NCBI GenBank assembly: GCA_030063045.1
Contig: JAQSEB010000019.1
Coordinates: 620,001-684,000, forward strand
Reading direction: 5' to 3'
DNA: 64,000 nucleotides
Origin: Pratylenchus scribneri
Taxonomy: Eukaryota; Nematoda; Chromadorea; Rhabditida; Pratylenchidae
The notes beneath the pieces were generated by a model. That model saw nothing but the letters and a program-made list of their open reading frames with translations. It made no database searches and was not told the origin of the DNA. The position numbers and the translations under genes are program-made. This document shows positions 30,870 to 52,400 of the stretch, one piece after another (the stretch's first letter is position 1; the number at the start of each line of letters is the position of its first letter).

Positions 30870-31915
30870 TGGTGAAATGCTAAAATTATCAAAGATTAAA
30901 ACAGAATAAAAAAATTCATTTTTAATAGATTTTTTTTTGTAAAAATGAAAGGAACTCCTTTTTCAATTTATTTTCATTCCATTTTAGATTGGGATGGAAT
31001 ATGTGAATGTGAGAAATTAATTTCAGGCCAGCATTCATAGCAAATATTTGGGAATGATGGAATATGGAGAAAGAATAAGAAAAAAATCAATACAAAAAAC
31101 ATAAATAGTGTATTTTATATTTTTTTATTATATATAATATAAAAAGAAATGTCAGGCGGTTTTTTGGGTATAATAAAAGGTTCGGTATGGGGGTTACGGG
31201 GTGGGACCAGGAAAAAGGAAAACTGCATCATGCACGCTTATAGATGATTATGGACATGATTTGGTTTGAGGTTGATTTTGGTCGCATGGTTAGCAGAGGG
31301 GTAAAATCGGTCTTTGGACTTAGAATTTTGACGAATTTTTTATATTTTGGTTCATAACTTTTTTGTGCATGAATATTTTGGCATTATCTGAAAGAATGGA
31401 GTTTTTGGAAAATTTTGGAAAATAAATTCTTTAAAACTTTTTTATAGCCGGTCAGATCGGTGATTGGATCTATATAAATGCGAAATTTTCTCAGTCAGTC
31501 TTAGATTTTGATCTAACCAATGAGCGGCGAGAAAGAGCAGCACTCGATGGAAAAAGACATGAATATTGGTATGGAATTTACCGGTATAACCGGAAACATT
31601 AACCGGTATAACCGGCTATATATAGAGAGAATTTTAATAACAGTACCGGTAAGACCGGTCGGACCGGTGGCGAAATTAATATATATTATAAAGGCTGCAT
31701 TTCCTCAGTCTCTTTTCAGTCATGTCATGATGAACGATTTGGCCTCAAAAAAGAGAAGAGCAGCGCTCATATTTTATATAGAAATATAATTTTTGGCAAA
31801 ATGAACGTTCAAAAATAAGGTTAGGGCTATGGGTTAGGGTTCGGAGGATGGGATTGAACGGAGTGAATATTGCGGAGCGAAGCGACCAATTCAAAAACTC
31901 CATTTTTGCGGATAG
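30870..31915. other. Left flank of the Maverick; no gene recognised
   Basis: Two diverged parallel segments (about 31465-31555 and 31675-31775) each read TATA-like sequence, CTCAGTC, then an ATG and AGAGCAGC(A/G)CTC, suggesting a duplicated promoter or repeat. ACCGGTATAACCGG words repeat between them (31575-31670). Confidence 0.45.
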
Positions 31916-32145
31916 CACTACAATATGGCCATATCTTTGGTTTTTATACAGGGAAGTTCCTGTTAAAAAAAAGAGATAAAGATCTAGAAAATAGCACAAA
32001 ACTGTGCATTATTGCGCTAAAAACGAAGCCAATAGGTAATCGGTGAATTTAGCAGATTCGCAGAGGGGAGAAACCAATCAAAGAAAATTGGCGCTCTAAT
32101 TGTATGCCCCTTTTGTTCGCGCAACGGCAATAGAAGAGAACAAAA
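31916..32145 (+). repeat. Maverick terminal inverted repeat, left
   Basis: Begins CACTACAATATGGCCATATC and stays alignable to the reverse complement of the right end for about 230 bp, through GATCTAGAAAATAGCACAAA, AAGCCAATAGGTAATCGG and TCAAAGAAAATTG. A weaker match (GTGACCTTCACTTCCGC) extends to about 32210. Confidence 0.83.
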
Positions 32146-33202: not shown

Positions 33203-34534
33203 CTATCCAATCTTCGAATCCGAAACAATGTGACGATTATAATCTATCATGACGAGTTGATCGAATTCGCCCAACACAATCATCTCTACTCCGGGAGCGG
33301 GAATTGGCGAATTGAATTGCATCCGAATCGAGGTGGTCCCACTGCGCAATAGCTCAAAGCCGCAACTATCGTCCAACGTACTGGTCAGGGGAATTACGAA
33401 TAGGGTCCATCCATCCTTGAATTGCTCAAAGCTGATATCGAACGAACGATCCGAGTTGGCCACACCCAATGCCTCATACATGTCCACAAAGGGGCGAACG
33501 CAGAAGCTGCGTGCAAAATTCATTCGATGTGGAACGGCAGGGTAGATTTGTCCGCCGGCATGAACGCTGATCTCGCGAATATCAAAGGGTTGGAAATTGA
33601 ACGGACTGTTCGTTATAAGCCCATTGAAAGCCCCGTTGTTCACCAGTCCAATGGTGATGCGACGAGGAATTGCTGCCGAGAACACGTTGTGCTCAATTTC
33701 CGTGCGACCCGTCGTCAGGAAACAACTTTTGATTTCGGTTTTTCGCACGGCATAGGTGGCCGGTTTCTGCTCCAGCATTTTGTAGATGTTCAAATTCAAC
33801 GACGGCTGTACCTCCACCATTTTCACATAGAGTTTGATGTCGTGAAGATAGAGGCGATATTGTGTAGCGCCAACACCGGCGGCCCGTAAACATTCCAACA
33901 TGAATGGGTCCTTTCCACGATACAGTGTGAACAGTAGATCCAAATTATTGAGCAAATATAACTTCTGATTGCCCAAGTCGAAATCCAGCCGAGAGAGGAA
34001 TTGTGCATTCGCGCCAGCGGCGAATGGCGCACATCGGGCCACGAAACCGGGATCCGCACGATCGTTATGTTTTTTGGTGCGATGATAGCCGCCGGCTGCC
34101 ATGAAATGTTCCTTCACGGATGCCGAAAAGCTCAACTCCTGGGTCAAATACGCTTTGTATGGGTACAGGGGCCCGCTGTCGTACAGCTCGGTGTTTCCTG
34201 CCTCCACCTTCAACTGTTGGATGAACGTTTGTCCGATGGACTGGATTACGCCAATTTCGGTGTCATCAGCTGCGGTGATCGCGATCCAATTTGCTTGATG
34301 CAACTTCTGAATAGATAACTCCAAATGTAGGTACACTCGCGAGAGATCGGTCCACAAATTGTCACTGAACATTCGGAACAGATAGGGCGACTCCTGTATG
34401 ATTGTGGCCAATGGGAGTACCTCACGATAATAGGAACGGCATACGGACACATTGGTAGGGGGAACGGCAAAAATGTTCAGGGCACTGTTGAATGCCAACC
34501 CACTCTGATCACTAATTTTTTTGGGACAGCTCAT
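33203..34534 (-). CDS. Maverick capsid protein (F54H12.2-like, probable major capsid)
   Basis: 443 residues in a single uninterrupted frame, start MSCPKK. The N-terminal pattern (LNIFAVPPTNVSV, DLSRVYLHLEL) matches the family named after C. elegans F54H12.2, found in many animal Mavericks. Length and all-beta character fit a double jelly-roll capsid protein building the icosahedral shell. It lies between the membrane protein and the Gly-rich basic protein, forming the usual structural cluster. The exact role (major capsid versus other jelly-roll protein) is inferred, not proven. Confidence 0.75.
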   Translation of the reverse strand: MSCPKKISDQSGLAFNSALNIFAVPPTNVSVCRSYYREVLPLATIIQESPYLFRMFSDNLWTDLSRVYLHLELSIQKLHQANWIAITAADDTEIGVIQSIGQTFIQQLKVEAGNTELYDSGPLYPYKAYLTQELSFSASVKEHFMAAGGYHRTKKHNDRADPGFVARCAPFAAGANAQFLSRLDFDLGNQKLYLLNNLDLLFTLYRGKDPFMLECLRAAGVGATQYRLYLHDIKLYVKMVEVQPSLNLNIYKMLEQKPATYAVRKTEIKSCFLTTGRTEIEHNVFSAAIPRRITIGLVNNGAFNGLITNSPFNFQPFDIREISVHAGGQIYPAVPHRMNFARSFCVRPFVDMYEALGVANSDRSFDISFEQFKDGWTLFVIPLTSTLDDSCGFELLRSGTTSIRMQFNSPIPAPGVEMIVLGEFDQLVMIDYNRHIVSDSKIG

Positions 34535-34553: not shown

Positions 34554-35183
34554 CTAATATGGGCCTAGGGCATCTACTTTAAGCGGTGGAAATTTTACTG
34601 CTGCTGCTTTTTTCCTCGTCGTTGTTTTCCGTTTCGTTCCGACAGATTTCCTTTTCTTCTGCGGTATTGTTGAAGGACCCAATGTGGAGAGGAGACGTCT
34701 TTTTATATGTTCGTCCACCACATCGCTCTCTTTACCTGCAGCAGCAGCAGCAGCCACCCTTTTGTACCGTTTGAAGTCAAAGTTGTTGTTGTTTCCGGAA
34801 CCCTTTTGTTTGTTCAAATTGTTGGCCGCTTTGTCCAGCAAATTTTTCAAACCACTTTTGCCCTCGCTAACCAGCGTTTCCTTCACATCTTGGCCATCGA
34901 GTAGTCCCGACAGTACCCGTGTACCCGTTTCCAGATCTTGGCGACCGATGGCGCCACCAATCTCTTTGCCAACCGGGAGGAGGACACGCCACAAACTCCG
35001 CAGCACCGCCCCAATACCAGCTCCGCGCTGAAAAGGCATTCCGCTGAAGACGGGATAGCTGGCACCAACACCACCGCCCCCCATCAATGCTTGGCCACCA
35101 CCACCACTCATTTGCCCATCGCCCCCATCGCTAATGGTGAAATAGCTCCAATCCACGATGTGCGGATCGAAATCGACATGCAT
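34554..35183 (-). CDS. Maverick Gly-rich basic virion protein
   Basis: About 209 residues from the Met at 35183 (MHVDFDPHIVDW); an in-frame Met at 35225 also exists but lies only 16 bp from the TATA box at 35241-35250. A Gly-rich start leads to FSGMPFQRGAG and an amphipathic stretch (AVLRSLWRVLLPVGKEIGGA), then a strongly basic tail (KKRKSVGTKRKTTTRKK). This layout recurs in Mavericks and adintoviruses and recalls adenoviral internal proteins, either DNA-condensing or membrane-active. Likely a substrate of the neighbouring protease; GG-containing segments could be cleavage sites. Confidence 0.65.
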   Translation of the reverse strand: MHVDFDPHIVDWSYFTISDGGDGQMSGGGGQALMGGGGVGASYPVFSGMPFQRGAGIGAVLRSLWRVLLPVGKEIGGAIGRQDLETGTRVLSGLLDGQDVKETLVSEGKSGLKNLLDKAANNLNKQKGSGNNNNFDFKRYKRVAAAAAAGKESDVVDEHIKRRLLSTLGPSTIPQKKRKSVGTKRKTTTRKKAAAVKFPPLKVDALGPY

Positions 35184-35239: not shown

Positions 35240-35253
35240 TATTTATATACTAT
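35240..35253 (-). promoter_or_regulatory. TATA box before the Gly-rich virion protein gene
   Basis: Minus strand reads ATAGTATATAAATA, ending about 58 bp before the preferred start at 35183 and overlapping the end of the protease gene. Confidence 0.55.
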
Positions 35254-35728
35254 CGCCAAACACAAATTTGCGAACAAATGCGCTGACCAGCCGATCTGCT
35301 CCACTTTGACAACCCCGTAAATGATGTTCCACTCGGCGTAGAGGCCAACCCTGACAACGGCGATGCAGGAAATAGATGACATGCTTGCCACAGGAAAGGG
35401 ACTGCTCCGATTGGATGGGTCTGTGCACCCGATTGACATGTTTGAATTTGCGAAGATAGGCGGAAATATCGGCCGACTTTGGCGGCCATACGCCGAATGA
35501 GTCAAAATAGTCGCATTGTTGTTGATCACCGCTTTCCACATATATGGCCACCCAATGGGAGCCAGGCTGGGAAGAGTCATCTGTGTTCACCACCATACAA
35601 TGCGGATGCGCCAGCCCTCTTCCACAGGGAATCCGATCGGCTGGAAAGCAGCCAATATATGTGGAGGATGTTTGCCGATTTCGCTGGAGTATTTTATTAA
35701 TCTCAGATGTGAACATAATTGAACGCAA
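35243..35728 (-). CDS. Maverick adenain-like cysteine protease
   Basis: 161 residues, start MRSIMF. It processes virion proteins during assembly. The catalytic layout of adenovirus protease is visible: His in GSHWVAIY (about residue 58), Asp in DYFDSFG (about 75), Gln in PIQSEQ and Cys in SLSCGKH (about 113). The N-terminal IGCFPADRIP also matches the family. Intact and of normal length. Confidence 0.85.
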   Translation of the reverse strand: MRSIMFTSEINKILQRNRQTSSTYIGCFPADRIPCGRGLAHPHCMVVNTDDSSQPGSHWVAIYVESGDQQQCDYFDSFGVWPPKSADISAYLRKFKHVNRVHRPIQSEQSLSCGKHVIYFLHRRCQGWPLRRVEHHLRGCQSGADRLVSAFVRKFVFGDSI

Positions 35729-35762: not shown

Positions 35763-36896
35763 TCAGAAATAGGGTATTTTTTTGAAATGTAAAGTCAATG
35801 TACATGTTCCATATTGGAAAGGCATCAGCTTTGTATTGGCCGCGCGGATCTCGAAGAACATCTCCTGGAATTCTCGTTTTATCAGTCGATGATACTGAAT
35901 GATGGGATAGCACTCTTCCACAATCTCATCCGCTTGGCCCCGAATGTTGACCATTCGCAGCACCGGGGCGGCCACATCCCCGATGAACACCGGTTCAATC
36001 AGATCCGGTGCATACACATAGAAGCTGGAGACACCGCCACGCATGTCGGGCATGTAACGTGCCACATTCATGGCCGAGTCCAAACGGGTGTCGGCAAAAC
36101 CGAGCATATAGGCCAACTGGGCGGACAGCTCCATACATTGAACATTGTCCTTCTCCAACCGAAGACGAAACCTCTGCCGATCCACGTCGAATCCGAATTT
36201 GCAATAGTGTTCCGGCGTTCGGTAGGCGTCCACCCATTTTTGTGCACCACCATGTAGTCGAGCCGATTTCACCAACTCCACATCCATCTCATTCAATTGG
36301 GCAGCAGAGAGCCGCTCAGCAAGAATCCGTTCAGTCTCTTCGGCCAACATTTGCTGCACTTCCGCACGTCCTAATATTTCCCGCTCCGAAATTTCAGCTG
36401 CTGCTGCTGCTGGGCTCGCTTCCGGCTGGCCGGATTTACGCGAACGCTGCTGCTGTGATGATGATGATGATGGAACGAATCGTGGCCAAACCAATTTGCG
36501 GGCCAGCAGTTTGGATTCGGTATCCGCCTCCTCCCAAATTTTATTGGCCGCCTCCAACCGCTGTGCCAAATGGTCTGCATCTGTCACAATGGCTTTGTTC
36601 AATGCAGTGACCAACTCCGTCGGATTCTTCATTGATGCGGATGGGATGGGAATTTGTAGCTGGGCGCCGGTTTGCCATATCACACGAATAAATTGCTCAT
36701 CTGTGGTGCCCAACGAGGGCCATGTGTTCGGATAGACCAACACGGCCAATCCCACACTCCATTGGGAATGAAAATGTAGTTTGCGAGGCAGACGTACACG
36801 AAAGGAATTTGTGCGGTTACCATCCACTTGTGTATTGGATGGACAAACCACATAGAAAGAGGTGGATTTGGAAACAGATGATATAGCAGATGACAT
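35763..36896 (-). CDS. Maverick penton-like minor capsid protein
   Basis: 377 residues, start MSSAIS. The N-terminus (FYVVCPSNTQ, NSFRVRLPRKL, WSVGLAVLVYPNTW) and C-terminus (DLIEPVFIGDVAAPVLRMVN, FQYGTCTLTLHFKK) match the single-jelly-roll minor capsid protein conserved in Mavericks, thought to occupy the five-fold vertices. The middle (about residues 105-215) is an Ala/Glu/Ser-rich helical insertion. A strong TATA box lies about 35 bp upstream. Confidence 0.78.
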   Translation of the reverse strand: MSSAISSVSKSTSFYVVCPSNTQVDGNRTNSFRVRLPRKLHFHSQWSVGLAVLVYPNTWPSLGTTDEQFIRVIWQTGAQLQIPIPSASMKNPTELVTALNKAIVTDADHLAQRLEAANKIWEEADTESKLLARKLVWPRFVPSSSSSQQQRSRKSGQPEASPAAAAAEISEREILGRAEVQQMLAEETERILAERLSAAQLNEMDVELVKSARLHGGAQKWVDAYRTPEHYCKFGFDVDRQRFRLRLEKDNVQCMELSAQLAYMLGFADTRLDSAMNVARYMPDMRGGVSSFYVYAPDLIEPVFIGDVAAPVLRMVNIRGQADEIVEECYPIIQYHRLIKREFQEMFFEIRAANTKLMPFQYGTCTLTLHFKKIPYF

Positions 36897-36930: not shown

Positions 36931-36942
36931 TTTTATATAATT
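36931..36942 (-). promoter_or_regulatory. TATA box before the penton-like gene
   Basis: Minus strand reads ATTATATAAAAAAAAACG, centred about 38 bp before the ATG at 36896. Confidence 0.6.
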
Positions 36943-38138
36943 GAAGTTGCGGGTATCCAGCTGTTATGGCGCGCGGAATAGCCTTTCCACTTGACCAGAC
37001 AATAGTCCACATTCCGCCGTCGTCGTCGTTCCAAAACACGTTCAATCTCATAGACACGATCTCCGTTTGCTGTCGTCTCCATGCCCTCGTCGTAGTCATC
37101 ATCGCGATCTTCTGGCGGCACAGGAACACGATCGGTGTCCTCCACCGGACACATCTCTTGGGCATAGAACCAGCCGGGGAGGAGCAATCCATTGCTGTCT
37201 GCAAGACGATATGTGCATGGCTGATTCGGTTGTCGTCTCACTCGCGTGACATGGAACAACGCATCCGTGAATGTGGGCAAATAGCCTTTGCGGAACACAT
37301 TCCTCCTCTTCTCCACTCGGACCTCATCGCCTAGTCGAAATCTGGGGCGACCGCCAAGCCTTTTGTGCTGTCTCTGCTCGCGCCAGTCCCTCTTCATTTT
37401 GCTCTCCAGCCGACGCCGCAGCTGCTCAGCATTGGCAAATGTAATATCCCGAGGCCGAAGCCCAAAAATTGCACTGTTCGGCGATGCATTCAACGCTGCC
37501 ACTATGCGCTGTATCACACCCACCCATGCGTTTGTGCCCCGATGCGTAAAATAGCGATACAGGCGCTCTTTGATGCTCCGATTGGCCCGCTCAGCCATAC
37601 CCGCATGCCATAGGGGCGAAGTTTGCATGCAATGATGTTGTACTTGCCTTTTCCGGAAATAGGATTGCATTTGAGCGGCGGTGAATTCCACGCCCGAATC
37701 CGTCATCAGTCGCCATGGAATGTAGCCACACCGGGTGAACACCCGTTCGAATGCGTCGATCATATTCCCACTGTGCTTGCTTCGGACCGGCTCCACATAA
37801 AGCTGACGACTGAGCACATCTATGCATACCAACATGTATCCATACCCGCCATTCCAGCGTTTCAGACGTTGCATATCGGCCAAATCCGCTTGCCAATCCG
37901 TATGCAGCCCACTGGCCCGAGTGCTGAGCCTTCGGAATTTTCGTACCACACGTCGATGCAGAGTGTGTACCCGTTGACGGGCCAAATATGCGCGCACATC
38001 ACTACGCCGAATGGCTCCATTCAATGCGGTGGCAGCCCGGAACAACGGTTCCACACTGGTGAAACAGGCCGACGACGATGGATCCTTGTACAGCGGATCC
38101 AAAAGCGCATCCACATTACGCGCATTGAGCTCAGCCAT
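36933..38138 (-). CDS. Maverick DDE integrase with C-terminal chromodomain
   Basis: 401 residues, start MAELNA. Retrovirus-type integrase that inserts the element into host DNA. Order: HHCC-like N-terminal region, the rve catalytic core with Asp in DWQADLADM, Asp in LMTDSGVEF and Glu in GMAERANRSIKERL, a basic SH3-like region, and a C-terminal chromodomain (YEIERVL, DYCLVKWKGY, HNSWIPA) whose aromatic cage residues are present. All three catalytic acidic residues are intact. The chromodomain probably directs insertion to methylated histone tails. Confidence 0.92.
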   Translation of the reverse strand: MAELNARNVDALLDPLYKDPSSSACFTSVEPLFRAATALNGAIRRSDVRAYLARQRVHTLHRRVVRKFRRLSTRASGLHTDWQADLADMQRLKRWNGGYGYMLVCIDVLSRQLYVEPVRSKHSGNMIDAFERVFTRCGYIPWRLMTDSGVEFTAAQMQSYFRKRQVQHHCMQTSPLWHAGMAERANRSIKERLYRYFTHRGTNAWVGVIQRIVAALNASPNSAIFGLRPRDITFANAEQLRRRLESKMKRDWREQRQHKRLGGRPRFRLGDEVRVEKRRNVFRKGYLPTFTDALFHVTRVRRQPNQPCTYRLADSNGLLLPGWFYAQEMCPVEDTDRVPVPPEDRDDDYDEGMETTANGDRVYEIERVLERRRRRNVDYCLVKWKGYSARHNSWIPATSII

Positions 38139-39675: not shown

Positions 39676-40461
39676 CTATGCTCCTTTATTTCCACTGTTG
39701 CTGCTGCTCTCGCTGATGTTGTTGTTGGCTATGTATACAATGCATTGCTCGCCCGGGTATATATGTGTTCTCAGGCGGAATTGGATTGCAGTTTTTGGAT
39801 GCATATCCACCAGCAGATAGCCAAATTGATCCACGGTGGCATCCGCATATGCCTCAACAAAGAATTGATGTGCCTGTCTTCCAGGGAACAATTGGGTGGC
39901 CAGATTCCGAATTTGCAGTGCTCCTACGGGATTACGCATCAGCACCAGGTAATGGGAATTGTTACGTGCCACACGAAGATTTGGAGAGGCGAACAGATGC
40001 TGGGTGACCAGCACCACGCTACAGCCCCAGTTATGTGAGCCCCGAGTGAAGAGGATATCCAAGAAGGTGGATTTCAATCCCACAATCAAATCATCCAAAA
40101 CCAGGAGCAAGCGCCCACCGCATTCGCTCGCCATACGCTGAACGTGCGTCTCATCGGGTACGCCGTAGTGAACTTGTAATTTCCATTCCTTAGCGCTGCC
40201 GCCGCCGTCATCATCGTTATTTTTATTTTCAAATTTTTGTTTGGCCTCATGTTGTTGGAGACGAAAAATGTTCACATTCATCTCCCCGTAACAATAGAGC
40301 ACACAACGAGGCGGTGGGGAAATCATGGCGTCCGCATGTCGGAGCAGTCGTAACACCCATTCCGATTTCCCACTCCCTGTGCAGCCGGACACGCACATTG
40401 TGAATGGGTGCTGGAATTGATTGGTGCTATTCTCATTTAGGTTCATTCTCTCCACTCTCAT
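39676..40461 (-). CDS. Maverick FtsK/HerA-type packaging ATPase
   Basis: 261 residues, start MRVERM (Met 6 at 40446 is an alternative). Pumps element DNA into capsids. Walker A is GCTGSGKS (about residues 29-36), Walker B is LLLVLDDL, and a sensor-like VVLVTQHL follows. The poly-Asp/Asn insert between the two is low complexity. It is divergent from the PAZ-like gene, with about 100 bp between starts. Confidence 0.88.
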   Translation of the reverse strand: MRVERMNLNENSTNQFQHPFTMCVSGCTGSGKSEWVLRLLRHADAMISPPPRCVLYCYGEMNVNIFRLQQHEAKQKFENKNNDDDGGGSAKEWKLQVHYGVPDETHVQRMASECGGRLLLVLDDLIVGLKSTFLDILFTRGSHNWGCSVVLVTQHLFASPNLRVARNNSHYLVLMRNPVGALQIRNLATQLFPGRQAHQFFVEAYADATVDQFGYLLVDMHPKTAIQFRLRTHIYPGEQCIVYIANNNISESSSNSGNKGA

Positions 40462-40489: not shown

Positions 40490-40503
40490 CACTATATATA
40501 GCC
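40490..40503. promoter_or_regulatory. Palindromic TATA box in a divergent promoter
   Basis: CTATATATAG reads the same on both strands. It lies about 30 bp before the ATPase start (-) and 63 bp before the PAZ-like gene start (+), so one site could serve both. Confidence 0.6.
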
Positions 40504-40563: not shown

Positions 40564-41721
40564 ATGTCGTCCACCAATTATTCTTCTGACCCCCAAATCG
40601 ACTGGCCCATCCAACACGAAGTAGGTGAAGGGGAGGAGGAGGAAAAACCGCAACTCATTGATGGCCCCATGAATCACCCAAATGGGGAGGAGGAGGAGGT
40701 AATTTCCAATTAAAAGTCTCGCTTAATTTTTTTTGTCTACTAAAGCAAATTGGCGCAAATGATGACGATGATGATGGAGACAAACGAATCCCAACACCAT
40801 GGTCAATCCCTTGGATTTTGATGGACAGTTTGGTGGCCCCCTCAACCAGTTCGAATGCCCAAAATGGTAAAAATTTTCATTGTGAAAAAATAAATTGAAA
40901 TTTAATTAGATGTTGATGGCGATTCCTCCGCCTCTTCACAGGGTTCTCCAGTCAAACTCATCATTGCGGATGATGATGATGTGGAGGGGGTGGAAGAAAT
41001 GAAAGCAGAGTTATTGGTCAAAGCGGCGGCGGTGGCCGAGGATGGTGAGAATGAAGATGGGGTGGAAATGAAGACGGCATCATCATCATCAACAACAACA
41101 ACAACAACAACAACACCCGAGATGGACGGGGCGCCATTGTGGGAGGAGCAACAGGAGGAGGAGGAGAAGAAACAGACAGTGATCACTATTCCACTATTGG
41201 ACTATTTGTGCGCATACATGGAATGTTCGCTGAAAGAGCTGCAAATTTTGCTGCAATCGCTGGAGCCCCGTCGCCGTCTACTCAACCATTTGCAAACATG
41301 CCATCTCCGCACCTCCCATCTGCGCCCGGCCGAGCGAAACATGACCCTGCATGCGCATGACCTCTCATCGCAAAATGCGAATTTGGCCTATGCCTGCGGT
41401 GGGTATTTGGACATCACCGTGCGCCAGTGGTATTACATTCGACATGCCCGCAAACTCAAACACCCATATTTGCCATGTCTGATCGAGTTTGGTGGGGGCC
41501 TGCACGCCTCCTACTATCCACTCGAGGTGGTCTCCGTCCATCTGACCAAAACAACAACATCAACGGGAGCCCCAGCGACCCAATCGTGCTCAAACAACAA
41601 CAACAACAGCAATTTGGTGCTCACCACTCCCATCAACCACTACAATCACAACACCAATAAACACCACATCATGTGTGGATGCCACCACTGCTGTTGCATG
41701 GCGCATAAACATCGCAATTGA
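40564..41721 (+). CDS. Maverick-borne PAZ-like protein (no PIWI domain)
   Basis: Three exons (40564-40698, 40746-40866, 40910-41721) join in frame to 355 residues, start MSSTNYSS. The first half is acidic and disordered. From about residue 180 it resembles the Argonaute PAZ domain: IPLLDYLCAY at the entry, LNHLQTCHLRTSH where Argonautes have the strand before the OB-like barrel, then ITVRQWYYIRHARKL, HPYLPCLIEF and YYPLEVVSV, matching the diagnostic order V-x-x-YF / YPxLPCL / YLPLEV. The tail is Asn/His/Cys-rich (CGCHHCCC). No N, MID or PIWI domain follows. PAZ domains grip 3' ends of small RNAs; the Tyr pair doing this in Argonautes is not clearly kept. Possible roles are interference with host RNA silencing or a protein-protein scaffold. 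Confidence 0.72.
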
Positions 41722-41833: not shown

Positions 41834-42640
41834 ATGTCATCGAGCCAATCATCATCATTACGTAACAGTACGATTACAGTCCAACTCCAACGGCAATTTA
41901 GCCGGAATGAGTATTTGGCATTGGCACGGCATGGGATGAACACCGAGTATTGTCCCCGACGATTTCATGCCATCATCATGCGTCTACGTCCAACAACAAC
42001 AACAATGGACGGTTCCACCGTTACGGTGCTGGTCTTTTCAAGTGGGCGACTGGTGATGACCGGCATCCGCCGTCATATTTCACAACAACAAACAAATGAT
42101 GAAATCACCCCCCAATTACATGCGGTGATTGGTCGGATTTGCAGGCGGCTGGATCGCTCATTGGCTGCTGGCTATAGGGCGGGCGAATGTGGCGAACCGG
42201 ACGGAACTACACCAGCCCCGCCCCCATTACGACCGCAATCCATTTGTGTACGTAATTTGGTTGGCTCTCGCCGATTGGCTACCCCACTGGTGCTTGGCCC
42301 AATGAGAGAATGGATGATGGCTGCCTATCGTTCCCAGCTGCCACTACAACAACTACAACAACCAATCCAAAATGGCCATGTTGTTGTTGTTCACGTTAAG
42401 CGATGTGTGCTCGATCAGACCACATTCCCCGGCCTCAGATGCACATTGCGTGTGGCGGCCACTGATGATGAAGAAGGAAACCACCCCGAACACTCCTCCT
42501 ATGAGCTAACCTCATTGGTTTTTGGCACTGGCCGTTTTATTGTGACCGGAGTGCGTACCCTATGGCAATTGGAACATGGATTGGATGTGATGGAACGGCT
42601 CTGCTCACTTTTCCCTTCCCCCAGACATACAAATGATTGA
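41834..42640 (+). CDS. Maverick-borne TATA-binding protein homologue
   Basis: 268 residues in one exon, start MSSSQSS. Both TBP repeats are recognisable. Repeat 1: EYCPRRFHAIIMRLRP then VLVFSSGRLVMTG. Repeat 2: ICVRNLVGS, TTFPGLRCTL, then SLVFGTGRFIVTG. The four phenylalanines that kink TATA DNA are present (RRF, LVF, TTF, LVF), as is an Asn in the RNLVGS segment. Repeat 2 has a long insertion (about residues 175-215) not found in cellular TBP, and the linker between repeats is extended. It follows the PAZ-like gene on the same strand with about 110 bp between. Likely a diverged but DNA-binding TBP serving the element's own promoters. Confidence 0.85.
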   Translation: MSSSQSSSLRNSTITVQLQRQFSRNEYLALARHGMNTEYCPRRFHAIIMRLRPTTTTMDGSTVTVLVFSSGRLVMTGIRRHISQQQTNDEITPQLHAVIGRICRRLDRSLAAGYRAGECGEPDGTTPAPPPLRPQSICVRNLVGSRRLATPLVLGPMREWMMAAYRSQLPLQQLQQPIQNGHVVVVHVKRCVLDQTTFPGLRCTLRVAATDDEEGNHPEHSSYELTSLVFGTGRFIVTGVRTLWQLEHGLDVMERLCSLFPSPRHTND

Positions 42641-42693: not shown

Positions 42694-45600
42694 TCACAGT
42701 TGTTCCTCTTCCTCATCCCATTCAGTGCTTTCCTCCTCATCGCCGCTGGCATCATCATCAGTGGATTCCATATTCACATCGGAATCGTCGACCACCTCCT
42801 CCTCCTCCTCCCCAAAGAACCAGCCAAATGGACGAGTGTGCAAATTTTCCAAAACAATGCCCTTGGTGTAGACGGGCTTGTATATTTTGTGTGTTGTTTT
42901 GGTGAAAATTTGTGCTCGCCTGTTGCGCACAAATCGTCGTTGGGGCACCCGAATGCGGCCCGGTGCAGCGGCAGCAGCAGCACCTCCAAATTGTCGTTCC
43001 ACCAGGCGGCACATTCGCCGATAGGTGAGCATTTGGCGGGCCTCGTGGGTCAATTCAATGCTGCGTACCTTCATGTCGGCCCGCTCATCCCCACCGGTCC
43101 GGGCACAACGATGCAGCAGGGCATAGTTCTTGGGGCCACCGCAAACCCATTCGCGAATGTCCCGCTGGGGCAGTTCACGCTTCATGTCGCCCAGGTAGTC
43201 GCCCTCTGGTAGACATGGTGGGTCCTCAAGCCTCCGCACATGAATGGCCGAATCCGTGTCACAATACAGCAGCCCACCGCCAGCCTCCTGAATGCGCTCC
43301 ATGTAGTCGTAGAGAACAAGGCGGGCATGTGCTGTCACAAAACATGCAATTTGGAGTGCATTTGTTGGTGCTGCCTTCGCAAATGGTGGACGCAACCGGG
43401 TCTGCACCCTGTCCAAGTGATCATTCAAATGCAGAAAGTCCATGATGTGAAGGCGTTGATCGTCCAACAGCTCATGGAATTCCCTCGCCGTCCGTGTGTA
43501 CTCCACATTTTCGCCCTCCGGCCGCTGCGCCAGCTTGCCCCAAAGCGCATTCAAAAATGCCTTCTGAAATGTGTGACATATTCAGTAAGGAAGTGGCCAA
43601 TGAAAAAATTACCGCGATGGCCCGAAGCCCAGGGTTGTGCTCAATGTGGTCGGGACGAAGGCTGATGCCCTCCCGCCGTTCAAATTCATCCACATGGGCA
43701 CGGCGCTGCTGTGGGCTGTCACAGCCGGGCGGCCCACCACTGGCCTCCGCCTTTATGCGCAACCACTCGTCCACATAGGCGCTGAACAGGCCCCGGTCAC
43801 CGGCCAGCTGATGCGGTCCAGGCATGGACCATTCCGCATAGTTCCACACCTTTTAAATATTCGTAGGTTTTTTTTTGATGATGATGATGATGGTCATACC
43901 TCAAAGATCTCTAGCACTGAATAACCGAGATCCAGGGCTCTGTTCAACTCGGCATGTGTGTACGCAGCTATCCAGCTGCGCTCCATCTCTGAATGGGTGC
44001 ATGGCCGATGTTGTTGTTGTTGTTGTTCAGCACATTCCCTGCACAGTGGGAACACCAAACGGCCCTTCACTGTTCGCATTGGAAGCAGTAGGCGTGGCCA
44101 TTTCCAATTGGTTGTTGTCGGACCGGCGGCGGCTGCTGCTGCTGCGGGTTGGCCCCGGGGTGGAAGCACCCGACAAAGGAGGAAGCCTTTGAATGGATTC
44201 TGGTGGGCATGGCGCCATGGCATTGGGGGCACTGCTGCATTGGTGAATTGATCGGGTGTTAGCACTTCGGGATGGCCGAGCGGGAATGTCCTATACTTCA
44301 TCACAAATGGATACAGCGAAACCTGTTTTTTGTGTGGGGGTGAGTTTGGCTACACAAAAATAAGGAATACAATGTCCAGGACTCGAATCTCCTCGGCCGC
44401 CGAGCACAAGTATTTGAGCACAAACGGCTCCACACGGCCACCGAACAGCGCATGTTTGCGCAAATCCAGCGGCCCGGGCAGATGATGATGCTGGGCCTGG
44501 GCATGCAATGTGCGGAGCCGCTTGTTGCCGGCCAACATTTTTGCCCATTCACAGCCCCACATTTCGCGCACCTCGAAACCGTAGCGGTGCTCCAGCTCCC
44601 ATGTTCGAAGCTGGGTCCTTGCATACAACTGTTCCGCACTCTGTCCCCCGGCCAGCTGCATTTGGCGATCGGGGAAACAGGTGGGACAGCCTATAGACAC
44701 ATAGAAATATTCTCTTTAATTTCAAAAAAAAAATGAACGGACCATGGTAGTAACAGCCGTGGAACTCAATGGCAAGTGGCCGAAGTGGGGGCGGCCGAGG
44801 CAGGAACCCATCCAGTCGAATGCCGCTGTCCTCCACCTGGTGTTCGCCAATGCTCCATGCCGCCGTCTGGATTTGCACACCACCACCACCACCACCACCC
44901 AACTCATGCTGGAGCACCCAAAAGAATCGCTGGGATTCGGCACTGGCCCGGCGGCCACGGAGGAAACCGCCTTCCGGCGTATGATGCACACGATTGGCCA
45001 CCAAGTTGTTCTGCCGGAAACTGGCCAGTGTAAGGCCCGCAATCGTGCTTGCGGCATCAAATGGTTCAATGCCGCCCGCCCGTTCACCAACCAACTGGCG
45101 GAATTTGAGGCAAGCCTCGCGCAGAATGGTCACATCCTATGTGTATAAAAATCCAAATCAACAACTCTGATTTCAAAAAAACAAACTCACATTGGTGCAA
45201 TAGACCAATAGCTGCTCACTCAGCACCCATCGCTGGTTGGGTGCTCGCCGCTGCTCATCCCCATACCAGCGGATGAGTTGTTGGCGTTTGGGAGGTTTCA
45301 TCCCCTCAGGCTCATACATGGCCAATGGGGGCAATCCCCGCAGCACCAGATGCAAGTTGGCCCGGCGAATGAATGCATAGGGGAAGTAGGGTTTGTCCTC
45401 CACCCCATCCAATCCCCATGTGGCCGGCAAAGCGCCCAATGCGCAGCCCAGAAAGTTGAGGCTGTCCTTCAGCACAATATCGCGTTTGTTGTTGCCGCCC
45501 AGCCGAAGCTGGTAAATCCTCAGCCCGGTGGTGATCAACTTTTGCGGTTGAATGGCCCTTTTCTGCAATTCTTCCAGCAACAATATAACATCATAGCGGC

Positions 45601-47279
45601 CCTACATATACAAAAAGAGAGAGAGAAAATCACAATCATCATCATCATCATCATCATCATCAATGGCTTACCCCGTTGTGTGCAAGACAAATGGTGCGGG
45701 TGCCACGGGGGCCATGGCCCAGCAAGAAATCCACGAATTGGGCCATCGGCTCACTCCACTCCACCGGTTGACCATCCGTAGGGCGTAGGCGGAATTGATG
45801 GAAGGCCAGCCGTCGGGCATTCAATCCATCTGCGGGCCATGGAGTGCCGGCATGCCGGCGTGTGGGATCCGCCGGCTGACACCATCGTCTCCGCGCTGCA
45901 CTGTCCAATCGCCATGGGACCCCACAAAAGCAGCCGGCTGCCTGGCGCATTGGCTCCTCCTCCAGCCGCACTCCTGCCGCAATGCACAGCTCACAGATCA
46001 CATCGGCACACACCAGCAGAGTGTGATGGCGTCGTTCAATCCGCAAATCCACATCATCATCATCATCATCATCATTGGCTACTGCTGCTGCTGCTGGTTG
46101 TGGCTCATCAATCAACTCGGTTTCCACATCCCAAAAGATGAATCTGACGGGCTTTCGACGTGGTTTTCGCCGACCACCACCACCTTCCATTTCTGCGCCT
46201 TCATCCGAGAGATAGTCATCATCATCATCATCATCATCATCCATCGCATTGGCCCATTGCACTTGCTTGGTGAACATTTTGGGCTGGACAAAACAGGGCT
46301 GTTCGCGCGTATGTGGGCCACCACATCTTTCACACAAATCCGCAGCAGCAGCCGCATCAACCAATTGGATGGCTGCAGAGAGAGAGAGAGAGAAATGTGT
46401 CTTTATAGAACATCATCATCAAAAATCAAACCATTTGGTTGAGGGCATTGGTGAGCAGCTGCTGCTGCTGCTCCTCTCCCATAGCGCCAATACACCTGGT
46501 GGCATTGAGCACATTGATGGCGCAGTTCACAAAGTGGCGCATGGGGCCGGCCCCTACGGCGGTCATGTTCCCAACCCGGTGGAGCGGGGTCAATGCGCTG
46601 GCGATGGGCAGCAAAACAGCCGGCATTTGGGAACACAAATCCACACAAGGGGCAGCGAATGGTGGGTTGGCCCGCCTCCCTTCTGCACGGGAAACCGGCT
46701 CCCCAACGGTAGCACAACAGACAAACCACACGACAGCCCTGGGGATGGCGATGCCGACTGACCGGGCCCTCACAATCGGGACACCATTCTTTGGCCTGAA
46801 AAATATATACGCATGAACATGTATGTGTGTGTGTGTGTATACACTACTGACATTGAACAGCTGTTGTGGCTGCTGAATGTATGACCAATGGCCAGCACAA
46901 CAGGCAATGGTCAGTGTGAATTGTGCCGGTGTGGGGCTCTTCCATGAAACGCGCCAGCCCCGCTCCCTCTCCAACAACACCAGGCGAACATGCTGGGGGC
47001 CGCCCAACTGGGTATTCAGCCATCGCTGCAGCCGTCGGGCATCGGCCACACCATAGCTGGGCTGCCCCAGGGGAATGCCGGCCTCGAGCATCAGTTTACA
47101 ATAGATAGAATAGACTAATTCCCTCTTTCCATCCACGTCGAATTTAATTATTAAACTGTCTTTCAAATGGCCGAAAATTATTTTAATTTGAAATTGGTGA
47201 TATCCAAAATACGGTATAAATCACTCACCTAATAATAAATCTGCAACATTGAAATATTTGGCCAATGCGGGAATCATGT
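42694..47279 (-). CDS. Maverick protein-primed DNA polymerase B, multi-exon
   Basis: Replicates the element. Exons chosen by splice signals and phase: 47279-47230 (tentative), about 47121-46852, 46795-46432, 46372-45672, 45601-45191, 45136-44743, 44690-44371, 44322-43900, 43849-43613 and 43563-42694, roughly 1,350 residues. An N-terminal C2H2/CxxC zinc-finger region is at 46795-46432. Exonuclease motifs: FWDVET, then NG split to GRYDVI across an intron, and a Tyr/Asp motif spanning the 45191/45136 junction. Polymerase motif A (SLYPF) begins exon 44322, motif B (NALWGKL) and motif C (YCDTDS) lie in the last exon. All exons stay in frame without stops. The C-terminus is a run of Asp/Glu. The first exon and its junction are uncertain. 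Confidence 0.88.
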
Positions 47280-48329: not shown

Positions 48330-48561
48330 TTGTTCCAAGCCAAGAAGCACTTTTGTAAACAAAAAGGGCATACAGTAAAAGAGACAATTTTCTTTGACGG
48401 GTTTTTCCCCTGCGCCCCGCGAAGCTGGAATTAACCGATTACCTATTGGCTTCATTTTAGCGCAATAATGTACAGTTTTGTGCTATTTTCTAGATCTTTA
48501 TCTGTTTTTTTTAACAGGGACTTCCCTGTATAAAAACCAAAGATATGGCCATATTGTAGTG
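48330..48561 (-). repeat. Maverick terminal inverted repeat, right
   Basis: Reverse complement of the left repeat with scattered substitutions and small indels. The weaker inner match reaches about 48290. Divergence between the arms shows the copy is not brand new or that the ends evolve freely. Confidence 0.83.
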
Positions 48562-48589
48562 ATAGCGTCAATATTTTGATTTCCTTCAT

Positions 48590-48910
48590 CCAAACATTTT
48601 GTATTTTTGTTCATCCAAACATTTTGTGTTTTTGCTCATCCAAACATTTTGTGTTTTTGTTCATCCAAACATTTTGTGTTTTTGTTCATCCAAACATTTT
48701 GTATTTTTGTTCATCCAAACATTTTGTATTTTTGTTCATCCAAACATTTTGTGTTTTTGTTCATCCAAACATTTTGTGTTTTTGCTCATCCAAACATTTT
48801 GTGTTTTTGTTCATCCAAACATTTTGTGTTTTTGTTCATCCAAACATTATGTGTTTTTGTTTCCGTAAACATTTTTTTCAACAAACATTTTGTGTTTTTG
48901 TTCATCCATT
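48590..48910. repeat. 25-bp minisatellite beside the Maverick right end
   Basis: About twelve units of TTCATCCAAACATTTTGTG plus TTTTTG, with G/A and T/C variants, starting about 30 bp outside the terminal repeat. Open frames here are repeat artefacts. Confidence 0.9.
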
Positions 48911-49009
48911 GTTTTTAGTTCATCAAAACATTTTGCATTTTCTCAATCATTTATTTTAACAAATATTTTATGGTTTTGTTTCCACAAACATTTTGTTTTT
49001 GTTCCAATT

Positions 49010-49477: not shown

Positions 49478-52400
49478 TTATATTTGCGAATATATTGTTT
49501 CCATACTTTCACTTGGCTCATCTTCATTCTCATTTTGTGTTGGCTCTATTATTTCATCTTTCGACCGGACAACTTCCTTAAAATTTTGATAAATTATCAA
49601 TTTTCAAATTAATTTGCCTCCGGTTTTTTGTTAAATTTGAACAGAAGAATTGAGCCAATGGCCACCACAATTAGCAAAATGCCGGCAATGACCAATCCAA
49701 GGCCAATATTGAATGAATAGCCAAAAACGGAATACAAAGATTGCAATTGCTTTTTTGTGCCCTCATCCATTGTTGCAGTTTCCTCAATTAAAATAATTGG
49801 CACAATCAAATTTTGCATTTCTTTGGTCATTCTAAAAATAGTCCCAATTATTGATTTTTGAAGAATATTTTGGGGGCTACCTTAAATTGCCTTGAAGCAT
49901 TCCCACATTCAATTGTGATTTTTGACGCACGCCAATGACGGATCCCGTCAATGGTTCAATGTCAAAATAGCTTAAATCATCATCGGATGGGTCGGCCATT
50001 CCTTGAAGTCGAATTTGTTCGGGTGCATTCCGAAAATGGGAATTAGACCAGAAAATGCGAGGATTGTGGGGAAGGCAGGTGGACAGGTCCAAAAGGCCAG
50101 ATGGGGCACAACCAACTTAAATTTGATTATTATAAATTAAATTTATTAGGTTGATTAGCCAAATTGATTGATGTAAAATTTAAATATAAATAGTAGATCA
50201 ATTTGAAAATAATTTTATAAATAATTCCGCCTATTTGCCCCAATTTAATTCCGCCTATTTGCCCCAATTTAATTCCGCCTATTTGCCCCAATTTAATTCC
50301 GCCTATTTGCCCCAATTTAATTCCGCCTATTTGCCCCAATTTAATTCCGCTTATTTGCCCCAATTTAATTCCGCTTATTTGCCCCAATTTAATTCCGCCT
50401 ATTTTATATATTAATTGCACATTTGCACCAAAATTTATATAAATTAATTTAAAATATTAAATTTATTTTTTTATTTTATTTTGTTTATCCACCTTCTTGA
50501 ATGCTGCTATTTTGGAAATAATCCGGTGAATTTGGATTGCAAAATCCTTGTTTCCCCTGAACATCAACATTCAATATGGAATCGGAAAATGCATAACGGA
50601 ATGCGTGAATGCCTGAATCCTCTGCCAATCCTCTCTTTTCCAATTCAAATGAGCTTAAAAATTATTTTAAATTATTTTTGAGCAATTTCCAACCGGCATA
50701 ATTGTCCAAGGAATCTGAAGGAAATATTTTTTTAAAAAATAAAATTCCCAAAATCAAATTTACATTTTTAAATTTCTTCCATCCGAAATATTCGGTCCAA
50801 ATAATTCCGCATCTAAATTATTTCATTATTAAATTAATTTCTTAAACGGTTCCAAAACCAGTTCCATTGATCATTCTGGCCGATTGGCTGTACCAAAAAT
50901 TGTCATTCAATTTCCCATTCATTCCATTGAATGAATATATTTGGCCTAACATTTCCACATTTTCAATGCCCGTGTCAATCTGTTCAAAATTCCCTCAAAT
51001 CAACAATAAAATGTACCCTAAAATTTACCTCATAAAGGCCATCATCCGTTCCATTTTGCTAATAAAATTAAATATTAAAAAAAATAATAAAATTTAAATA
51101 AATCACTCCATAAAATAGTCCAATTCGTTCAGGAATATCCTTTAATTCGGGGCAAATTGATGGAATTTGATGGCATAATTTTGTCATCAATTTAATCATT
51201 TTATCCTCATATCCAGCAAAAAGTAATTCATCCACACTCAATTCAATAAATGGACCCTCATTGAATAATGACAATGCCCCGTTGATGATTTCTCTTTCAA
51301 ACCAATTCTTTTCCTTTGCAATGTCCACAACTTTCTGAAATTGCAAATTAAGAAATTGTTAATATTTAAAATGACAAAAAAAACACTGTCTCAAAAAAGG
51401 ATGAAATTGTCGAAAAAGTACCTAATAAGGCCAAAATAATTATAATTATTTAAGGAAAGTTCCAGCATAAACCATATTGTCAATGACAATAATGCCTAAA
51501 GGCTTTTCCTATTCGTCCTATTGTACTCCCACTTTTTGACTAATCACCCATCGTCCTATCCTATCAATCAGATACATATTGCCCCAATCTATCTTTTAAA
51601 TCCCCCTCCTTTCTTTCCTCTCCTGAATCCTGATATCTACTTCATAATATTTTATTATCACATTTTCTGAACAATTAATAAAGAATAATTTAAAGTTTCG
51701 CCTATAATCTTTATACATTCATTGGGCTACTGGGGGCTTATATAGGTCTCCGGTGAAGGTACGGGGACTGAAGCATAGGCCCACCAGATTCTAGCTCCAA
51801 ATTCTTTAGCCCTAGATTAAACTAATACATATATAGAACAAATGTCAAAATGGAACAATTAGTATATAATTTGCTTATTTGGTCAATAATATAGAACAAA
51901 TGTCAAAATGGAACAATTAGTATATAATTTGCTTATTTGGTCAATAAAGAGCATTAAACCATTCAAACCAATTTAGTTCAAAACTAAATAAGAATTGGTT
52001 AAACTTTCGCCAAATGAATTATCAAATGTTTTGTCTTGACGAGATTTTATCGATTAAGTATAATGTTTACACTTGGGATAAACCAATTATAATATCCTAA
52101 TATACTAAACGAATTCTCTGTGTCCGAAATATTGTTCTTCAAATTTATTTTTTTTTGGCGTTATGCCTTTAAATATTTTTCGTTCTAAAATATACAAAAA
52201 TAAATTATATATAGTTAAGGAATAAAGAAAAATAGTTTTTTATACATATAGAATAAAGAAATAAAGAAAAAGAAATATTTTTAAAAATAGAAATAAACAT
52301 TTTAGAAAATATTTCACAAAAATAAATGATGAAAAAATGTCGAAAGCTTTTTCTATAATAAAAAAATTATTAAAAGATAAAAGCATACAAATTAATTTTA

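What the first reader, a model, noticed from the sequence alone, without database searches (positions are those of the whole stretch)
41834..42640. A Maverick encodes its own TATA-binding protein
Both TBP repeats are visible, all four DNA-kinking phenylalanines are retained, and the gene is intact. TBP homologues are known in some giant viruses; I know of none described in Mavericks/Polintons. A private TBP would let the element start transcription independent of host TBP levels, or divert host polymerase II to element promoters.
Basis: partly seen in the sequence, partly recalled or inferred. Interest (0 to 1): 0.95.

Follow-up and report, generated by a model that had tools for sequence, protein, structure and literature searches.

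The report
Virus-like transposon with its own TBP
A virus-like transposon family (Maverick), repeated many times in what is likely a plant-parasitic nematode's genome, carries its own gene for a relative of TBP, the protein that marks where gene reading starts, directly after a gene with a predicted Argonaute-type PAZ domain, while sister families carry a TFIIB relative in the same place; the element likely uses these proteins to switch on its own genes.

Summary

It is no stray copy. Of 73 TBP-like loci in this genome, 55 lie within 20 kb of Maverick MCP/ATPase hits (about 2 expected). Main-type Maverick TBPs, with relatives from Heterodera, Globodera and Meloidogyne, form one clade (100/100) apart from host TBP; two smaller Maverick-associated groups fall outside it.

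Likely role: driving the element's own promoters. Function is untested; TFIIB-docking residues are altered, and 43 of 95 MCP places have neither factor nearby.

The parts
41834..42640 (+). TBP homologue, 268 aa, two repeats, all four kinking Phe
40999..41721 (+). Stand-alone Argonaute-type PAZ domain protein, 240 aa, directly upstream of TBP on the same strand
31916..32037 (.). Left terminal inverted repeat, starts CACTACAATATGGCC
   Evidence: one search places the ungapped arms at 31906-32022 and 48455-48571
48441..48561 (.). Right terminal inverted repeat; ATAG lies directly outside both arms (possible 4-bp target duplication, could be chance)
36933..38138 (-). Integrase (rve) with C-terminal chromodomain
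   Evidence: Pfam 3.4e-8 and 6.4e-8, both above cut-off
35243..35716 (-). Adenovirus-type (C5/C48) cysteine protease, likely
   Evidence: Pfam C5 0.00029, just under cut-off
39676..40461 (-). Likely DNA-packaging ATPase, divergent from PAZ-TBP
   Evidence: Pfam Adeno_IVa2 0.00038, Pox_A32 0.00085, just under cut-off; no packaging ATPase by sequence in PDB
33203..34534 (-). Putative major capsid protein (by size and place only)
   Evidence: no database match; conserved in copies
35763..36896 (-). Putative minor capsid protein (by size and place only), TATA box upstream
34554..35183 (-). ORF209, function unknown, TATA box upstream
42694..47220 (-). Family-B DNA polymerase in several open pieces (introns or breaks not resolved)
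   Evidence: PHROG DNA polymerase 2.3e-14 for 42697-43581, Pfam PF03175 0.0013 (under cut-off) for 45176-45601, DTDS motif
40493..40500 (-). TATATATA 39 nt before the ATPase ATG, kept in diverged families
36931..36939 (-). TATATAAAA 43 nt before the putative mCP ATG
35240..35249 (-). TATATAAATA 66 nt before ORF209 ATG

Best explanation
The gene at 41834-42640 encodes a TATA-binding-protein homologue belonging to a Maverick element, and it likely binds TATA boxes in front of the element's own genes and starts their transcription with the host's RNA polymerase II. Shown: the TBP sequence with its DNA-facing residues kept; recurrence beside Maverick genes at 55 loci; the PAZ gene directly upstream; a TFIIB homologue in the same slot in sister Mavericks; TATA boxes before ATPase, mCP and ORF209; purifying selection. 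Predicted: the saddle and PAZ folds. Inferred: the PAZ-TBP pair is made first (no TATA box was seen in the 200 nt before PAZ or TBP in the window), TBP then marks the TATA-bearing packaging and capsid genes, and its changed TFIIB-facing stirrup gives it a separate way of docking TFIIB. The PAZ protein would hold 3' ends of host small RNAs and so blunt silencing of the element, so that the cassette would both start transcription and protect its products.
For: TBP identity and fold. DNA face kept (counterparts of yeast N69, N159 and the four Phe; numbering recalled). Recurrence: 55 of 73 loci near Maverick MCP/ATPase against 2.05 expected. PAZ upstream of TBP on the same strand, hits 87-481 nt apart, in 51 of 51 loci with a PAZ hit within 5 kb, plus 6 of 6 group-6 loci by local tblastn; that makes 55 of the 55 Maverick-linked loci. 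TFIIB homologues next to PAZ in 7 of 7 places, no TBP locus within 20 kb of any; four of the seven scanned: TFIIB repeats above cut-off in 4 of 4, zinc ribbon above cut-off in 1 of 4 and at E 1e-4 to 4e-6 in the others. TATAWA at -100..-20 in 9 of 23 start regions; shuffles mean 3.6, 4 of 1000 reach 9; for ATPase, mCP and ORF209 8 of 8, shuffles mean 2.1, max 6 in 500. omega 0.13-0.40 for TBP in six pairs, 0.13-0.18 for PAZ in three pairs.
Against: The TFIIB-contact residue counterpart of yeast E188 (recalled) is kept in 18 of 18 canonical TBPs but in none of 35 main-clade Maverick TBPs, so host TFIIB may not dock; this could mean a blocker rather than an activator. The three-gene TATA set was chosen after seeing the data; 14 of 23 starts have no TATA in the range, and the G5 copy L042 showed none in the stretch read. 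No expression data. 43 of 95 MCP places have neither a TBP nor a TFIIB hit within 20 kb, so the factor is not needed by all Mavericks of this genome (split genes may be missed by the search).
Confidence: 0.62

Rival explanations
1. Decoy or blocker: the Maverick TBP occupies TATA boxes but cannot dock TFIIB, and so represses host or competing element promoters.
For: DNA face kept while the TFIIB-facing stirrup is changed in 35 of 35 main-clade rows; insertions of varying length after the first MRLR stretch.
Against: Group 7 keeps the canonical stirrup in 3 of 3 and group 6 keeps E188 in 4 of 6; a TFIIB homologue, an activator component, fills the same slot in sister Mavericks; element genes themselves carry TATA boxes.
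Confidence: 0.2
2. DNA-bending role in replication, integration or packaging: the TBP fold kinks the element ends rather than promoters.
For: The inverted repeats hold ATAT and TTTTATAC stretches near their outer ends.
Against: TFIIB, not known to kink DNA by itself (recalled), replaces TBP in the same slot; MCP-bearing places without TBP exist.
Confidence: 0.08
3. Passenger host gene captured recently and without function for the element.
For: An old origin from a nematode TBP is not excluded (AU p=0.285).
Against: 28% identity to host TBP, separate 100/100 clade, fixed place next to PAZ in 57 of 73 loci, relatives in Heterodera, Globodera and Meloidogyne, omega well under 1.
Confidence: 0.05
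4. PAZ and TBP act as one silencing-related complex: TBP brings the PAZ protein to nascent element transcripts.
For: Pair adjacent in 57 of 73 loci; gene models of G. pallida and M. enterolobii join both parts (P0010, P0027, P0035).
Against: PAZ also occurs in 44 clusters near MCP/ATPase without TBP; joined models may be prediction errors; separate ORFs in the window.
Confidence: 0.05

Closest known systems
Eukaryotic TATA-binding protein (TBP core)
   Same: Two repeats, predicted saddle fold, groove Asn and kinking Phe
   Different: Encoded by a Maverick; 28% identity to host TBP; loop insertions; TFIIB stirrup residues changed
TBP of large DNA viruses: mirusviruses (59% of genomes, against 0% given for Nucleocytoviricota in that comparison; PMC10132985, passages seen) and Megavirus chilensis, which has TBP and TFIIB (PMC11464507, passages seen)
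   Same: DNA viruses that encode TBP, or TBP and TFIIB, of their own
   Different: Large viruses of protists/plankton, Megavirus with its own RNA polymerase; TBPs from IMG/VR contigs of 34-150 kb (virus type not determined) fall outside the Maverick clade; no PAZ relative found in viral contigs
Maverick/Polinton (nematode Mavericks with a fusogen and wosp/krma cargo: meeting report PMC10680173, passages seen)
   Same: TIRs, rve-chromo integrase, PolB, and likely C5-like protease and packaging ATPase
   Different: Adds a PAZ plus TBP (or TFIIB) cassette, not mentioned in the passages that I could search
Argonaute PAZ domain
   Different: Stand-alone: no PIWI or MID domain found in the ORF
TFIIB
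   Same: Zinc ribbon plus two cyclin repeats
   Different: Maverick-encoded, in the slot of TBP; found in sister elements, not in the window

Membership tests
TBP | Two TBP repeats along one chain | tested here: met
   A1 profile aligns with 1tbp over both repeats, E=5.1e-31; Pfam alone finds repeat 1 only
TBP | Saddle fold | tested here: met
TBP | Four kinking Phe and two groove Asn | tested here: met
   window F44, F68, F198, F230; Asn N11, N141
TBP | TFIIB-contact stirrup (E186, E188, L189 of yeast; numbering recalled); a contact surface, not part of the fold definition | tested here: not met
   E188 changed in 35 of 35 main-clade rows, window included
TBP | Binds TATA DNA | not testable with these tools
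   needs a binding assay
Maverick/Polinton | Terminal inverted repeats around 15-20 kb (size recalled) | tested here: met
   121/122-nt arms, 16.6 kb
Maverick/Polinton | Retroviral-type integrase | tested here: met
   rve and chromo above cut-off
Maverick/Polinton | Family-B DNA polymerase (protein priming not tested) | tested here: met
   PHROG DNA polymerase 2.3e-14; PF03175 0.0013, under cut-off; gene in pieces
Maverick/Polinton | Packaging ATPase and adenoviral protease | tested here: inconclusive
   best matches of the right kind but just under Pfam cut-offs; no PDB support for the ATPase by sequence
Maverick/Polinton | Double jelly-roll MCP | tested here: inconclusive
   no match in Pfam, PHROG or PDB; not folded
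PAZ domain (Argonaute type) | PAZ fold | tested here: met
   predicted fold; Pfam sub-threshold for the window copy, above cut-off in sister Mavericks L068, L071, L072 but not L066 or L070
PAZ domain (Argonaute type) | Binds small-RNA 3' ends | not testable with these tools
   two pocket positions compared only

The most novel reading that the evidence does not exclude
Nematode Mavericks are self-starting elements: many lineages carry a two-gene licensing cassette, an Argonaute-derived PAZ protein that defeats small-RNA silencing plus one private general transcription factor, TBP or TFIIB, interchangeable in one slot. They thus build an element-specific version of the pre-initiation complex, the first transposable element known to bring its own core Pol II initiation factor.
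Probability: 0.45. Interest if true: 0.97.

Novelty: new variant of a known kind. Interest (0 to 1): 0.93.

Why it matters
Transposons are thought to borrow the host's core transcription machinery. A Maverick that carries TBP or TFIIB would show an animal mobile element breaking that rule, and its pairing with a PAZ protein suggests that expression and escape from silencing are handled by one cassette. It makes testable how capsid-bearing transposons time their genes, and bears on their reported role in gene transfer between nematode species. It also gives a natural set of highly diverged TBPs with a changed TFIIB face.

Tried and rejected
Recent host retrocopy: rejected by identity, tree and recurrence. 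I first took C10:1388811 and C41:1379489 for TLF and C33/C115 for host TBP; the tree places L030 (C10) with nematode TBPs, so it is the host TBP, and C33/C115 is a diverged host paralogue near M. enterolobii P0036 (support 31/66 only). Joint origin tests (AU): main clade with nematode TBPs not rejected (p=0.285); main plus group 6 allowed (0.506); all three Maverick-associated groups as one clade marginally rejected (0.045); group 6 with nematode TBPs marginally rejected (0.042); the SH test rejects none of the four. Group 7 (C131 twice, C181, C142:369k) joins the viral TBPs in the tree but on long branches; I draw no conclusion.

Searches without result: TBP and MCP in phage records, PAZ and MCP in viral contigs, MCP in PDB, packaging ATPase in PDB (best row an unrelated protein at 0.0027). 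The tree holds 32 of the 73 loci of this genome: most exon-split group 4 and 5 copies were not fetched. Rows dropped before it: L063, L038, L043, P0027 and L031 (duplicates or too short); second loci of the same place (such as L019, L027-L029, L032, L034-L036, L039-L041) and the cut copy L012 were not given. In one search the L008 and L011 stretches have no ATPase hit and were not counted. The L069 stretch of C13 turned out to lie on the side of the MCP away from the PAZ slot.

Papers: searches for Maverick, Polinton or polinton-like virus with TATA-binding protein, TBP, TATA-box, PAZ or TFIIB, and more general ones. Passages searched in ten papers: PMC10675990, PMC10132985, PMC11071296, PMC11071308, PMC10120064, PMC10680173, PMC6361761, PMC12638062, PMC7786948, PMC11464507; the other listed papers I saw as titles and abstract starts only. 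None of the passages describes TBP, PAZ or TFIIB in a Maverick or Polinton. PMC10675990 names TBP genes in elements of putative mirusvirus origin. The two most relevant papers (nematode polintons, PMC10748475; Mavericks and gene transfer, 10.1126/science.ade0705, DOI recalled) are not held, so a mention there cannot be excluded.

Full report

Recurrence. Clustering 128 Pfam hits and 57 protein hits gives 73 TBP-like loci; 46 have an MCP hit and 54 an ATPase hit within 20 kb, 55 either. The 20-kb neighbourhoods of those hits cover 2.8% of the genome, so about 2 of 73 are expected by chance. MCP and ATPase lists were capped by the tool (95 of 344 and 146 of 310 candidates scored), so linkage is a lower bound. 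Of the 18 loci not linked this way, four are host-like (C10:1388811, C41:1379489, C33, C115); C112 and C95 have the PAZ gene; L018 (C131) has a PolB piece beside it (PF03175 2.6e-6), and the second C131 copy lies in an inverted repeat of the first; four (C235, C25 twice, C96) I did not resolve, the one at C25:575632 lying near a contig end; the rest are fragments or unresolved. Group 6 (six loci) has the integrase at 43-44% identity nearby in 6 of 6 and a protease match next to it. Public relatives include, by their source names, Heterodera trifolii P0008, Globodera pallida P0010 and P0027, and Meloidogyne enterolobii P0035.

Tree. An LG+G4 tree of 67 TBPs over 177 columns separates the Maverick main clade (33 rows, of which 12 public) from canonical, viral, group-6 and group-7 TBPs with 100/100 support. 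Identity of the window protein to host TBP is 28% over 163 columns. AU tests do not reject an old nematode origin (p=0.285) and allow group 6 to join the main clade (p=0.506), but marginally reject one clade of all three (p=0.045); the SH test rejects none. The source of the gene is therefore open; a recent host copy is not.

Residues. In 35 main-clade rows the first three kinking Phe are F in 35 of 35 and the fourth is F in 20, Y in 15; the groove asparagines are N wherever the column is read. The counterpart of yeast T124 differs in two main-clade rows and in groups 6 and 7. The counterpart of yeast E188 (TFIIB contact; recalled) is E in 18 of 18 canonical TBPs and in none of the 35. So the DNA face is largely kept and the TFIIB face is not. 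Group 7 keeps the canonical TFIIB face in 3 of 3.

TFIIB swap. A search for TFIIB domains found hits inside Mavericks. Four ORFs scanned have two TFIIB repeats above cut-off and a TFIIB zinc ribbon (above cut-off in one of four), and two match human TFIIB at 1e-19 and 4.9e-18. Seven copies exist, one with an internal stop; each overlaps or directly follows PAZ on the same strand, with no TBP locus within 20 kb. They occur in both layouts seen for TBP: divergent from the ATPase (C48, C157) or co-oriented about 8 kb away (five copies). The five are all five elements of the MCP group at 50-51% identity; in the group at 45-46% two of three have a hit, and C13 has none. Of 95 MCP places, 45 have TBP, 7 TFIIB and 43 neither within 20 kb. 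That TBP and TFIIB share a slot is the strongest argument for a role in transcription initiation.

Promoters and selection. TATAWA lies at -100..-20 in 9 of 23 start regions of three diverged elements; dinucleotide shuffles give 3.6 on average and reach 9 in 4 of 1000. For ATPase, mCP and ORF209 it is 8 of 8 (shuffle mean 2.1, max 6 in 500); the other genes 1 of 15. The gene set was picked after looking, and the three elements are related. The box before the ATPase is also seen in six G2 copies, two more G1 copies, L013, L053 and L054, but not in the L042 stretch. TBP omega (NG86) is 0.13-0.40 in six pairs and PAZ 0.13-0.18 in three.

Reading. I take the PAZ-TBP pair to be an expression cassette: TBP likely starts transcription of TATA-bearing element genes, and PAZ is predicted to bind small RNAs and blunt silencing. 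Both functions are inferred. The altered TFIIB face keeps the blocker rival alive.

Novelty. Large DNA viruses are known to carry TBP (mirusviruses, 59% of genomes, PMC10132985, passages; Megavirus chilensis with TBP and TFIIB, PMC11464507, passages). I found no paper on TBP, PAZ or TFIIB in Mavericks in the searches, but two key papers are not held.

Noticed in passing
L014:2084-2698 (C42 Maverick, group 3): A thymidine kinase (Pfam TK 2.9e-37) lies directly after TBP in a Maverick.
   Followed up: partly
L020:433-819 (C142 Maverick, group 6): A NADAR-domain ORF (Pfam 4.2e-12) lies near the PAZ-TBP pair.
   Followed up: no
L066:847-1719, L067:788-1660, L068:2036-2773, L073:2601-3293: TFIIB homologues in Mavericks, in the place of TBP.
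   Followed up: yes
L072:626-1540 (C63): A PAZ ORF of 305 aa with a Cys-rich C-terminal extension (CxxC pairs) after the PAZ domain.
   Followed up: no
C131:360859-373648 (L018, L019): Two TBP copies in a 99.9% identical inverted repeat of 2840 nt, about 12 kb apart, one beside a PolB piece.
   Followed up: partly
window 48546-48920: A 25-nt tandem array begins at the outer edge of the right inverted repeat.
   Followed up: no
C33:1589809-1590440 and C115:697496-698119: A diverged second host TBP gene (C33 68% to the main host TBP), nearest to a Meloidogyne enterolobii protein with weak support.
   Followed up: partly
C87:310763-325281: Neighbouring pieces of window-type element with duplicated PAZ and ATPase, a cut TBP and a cut integrase: a rearranged copy.
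   Followed up: no
window 50198-50428 and 51831-51946: Tandem repeats of 24 and 58 nt to the right of the element.
   Followed up: no
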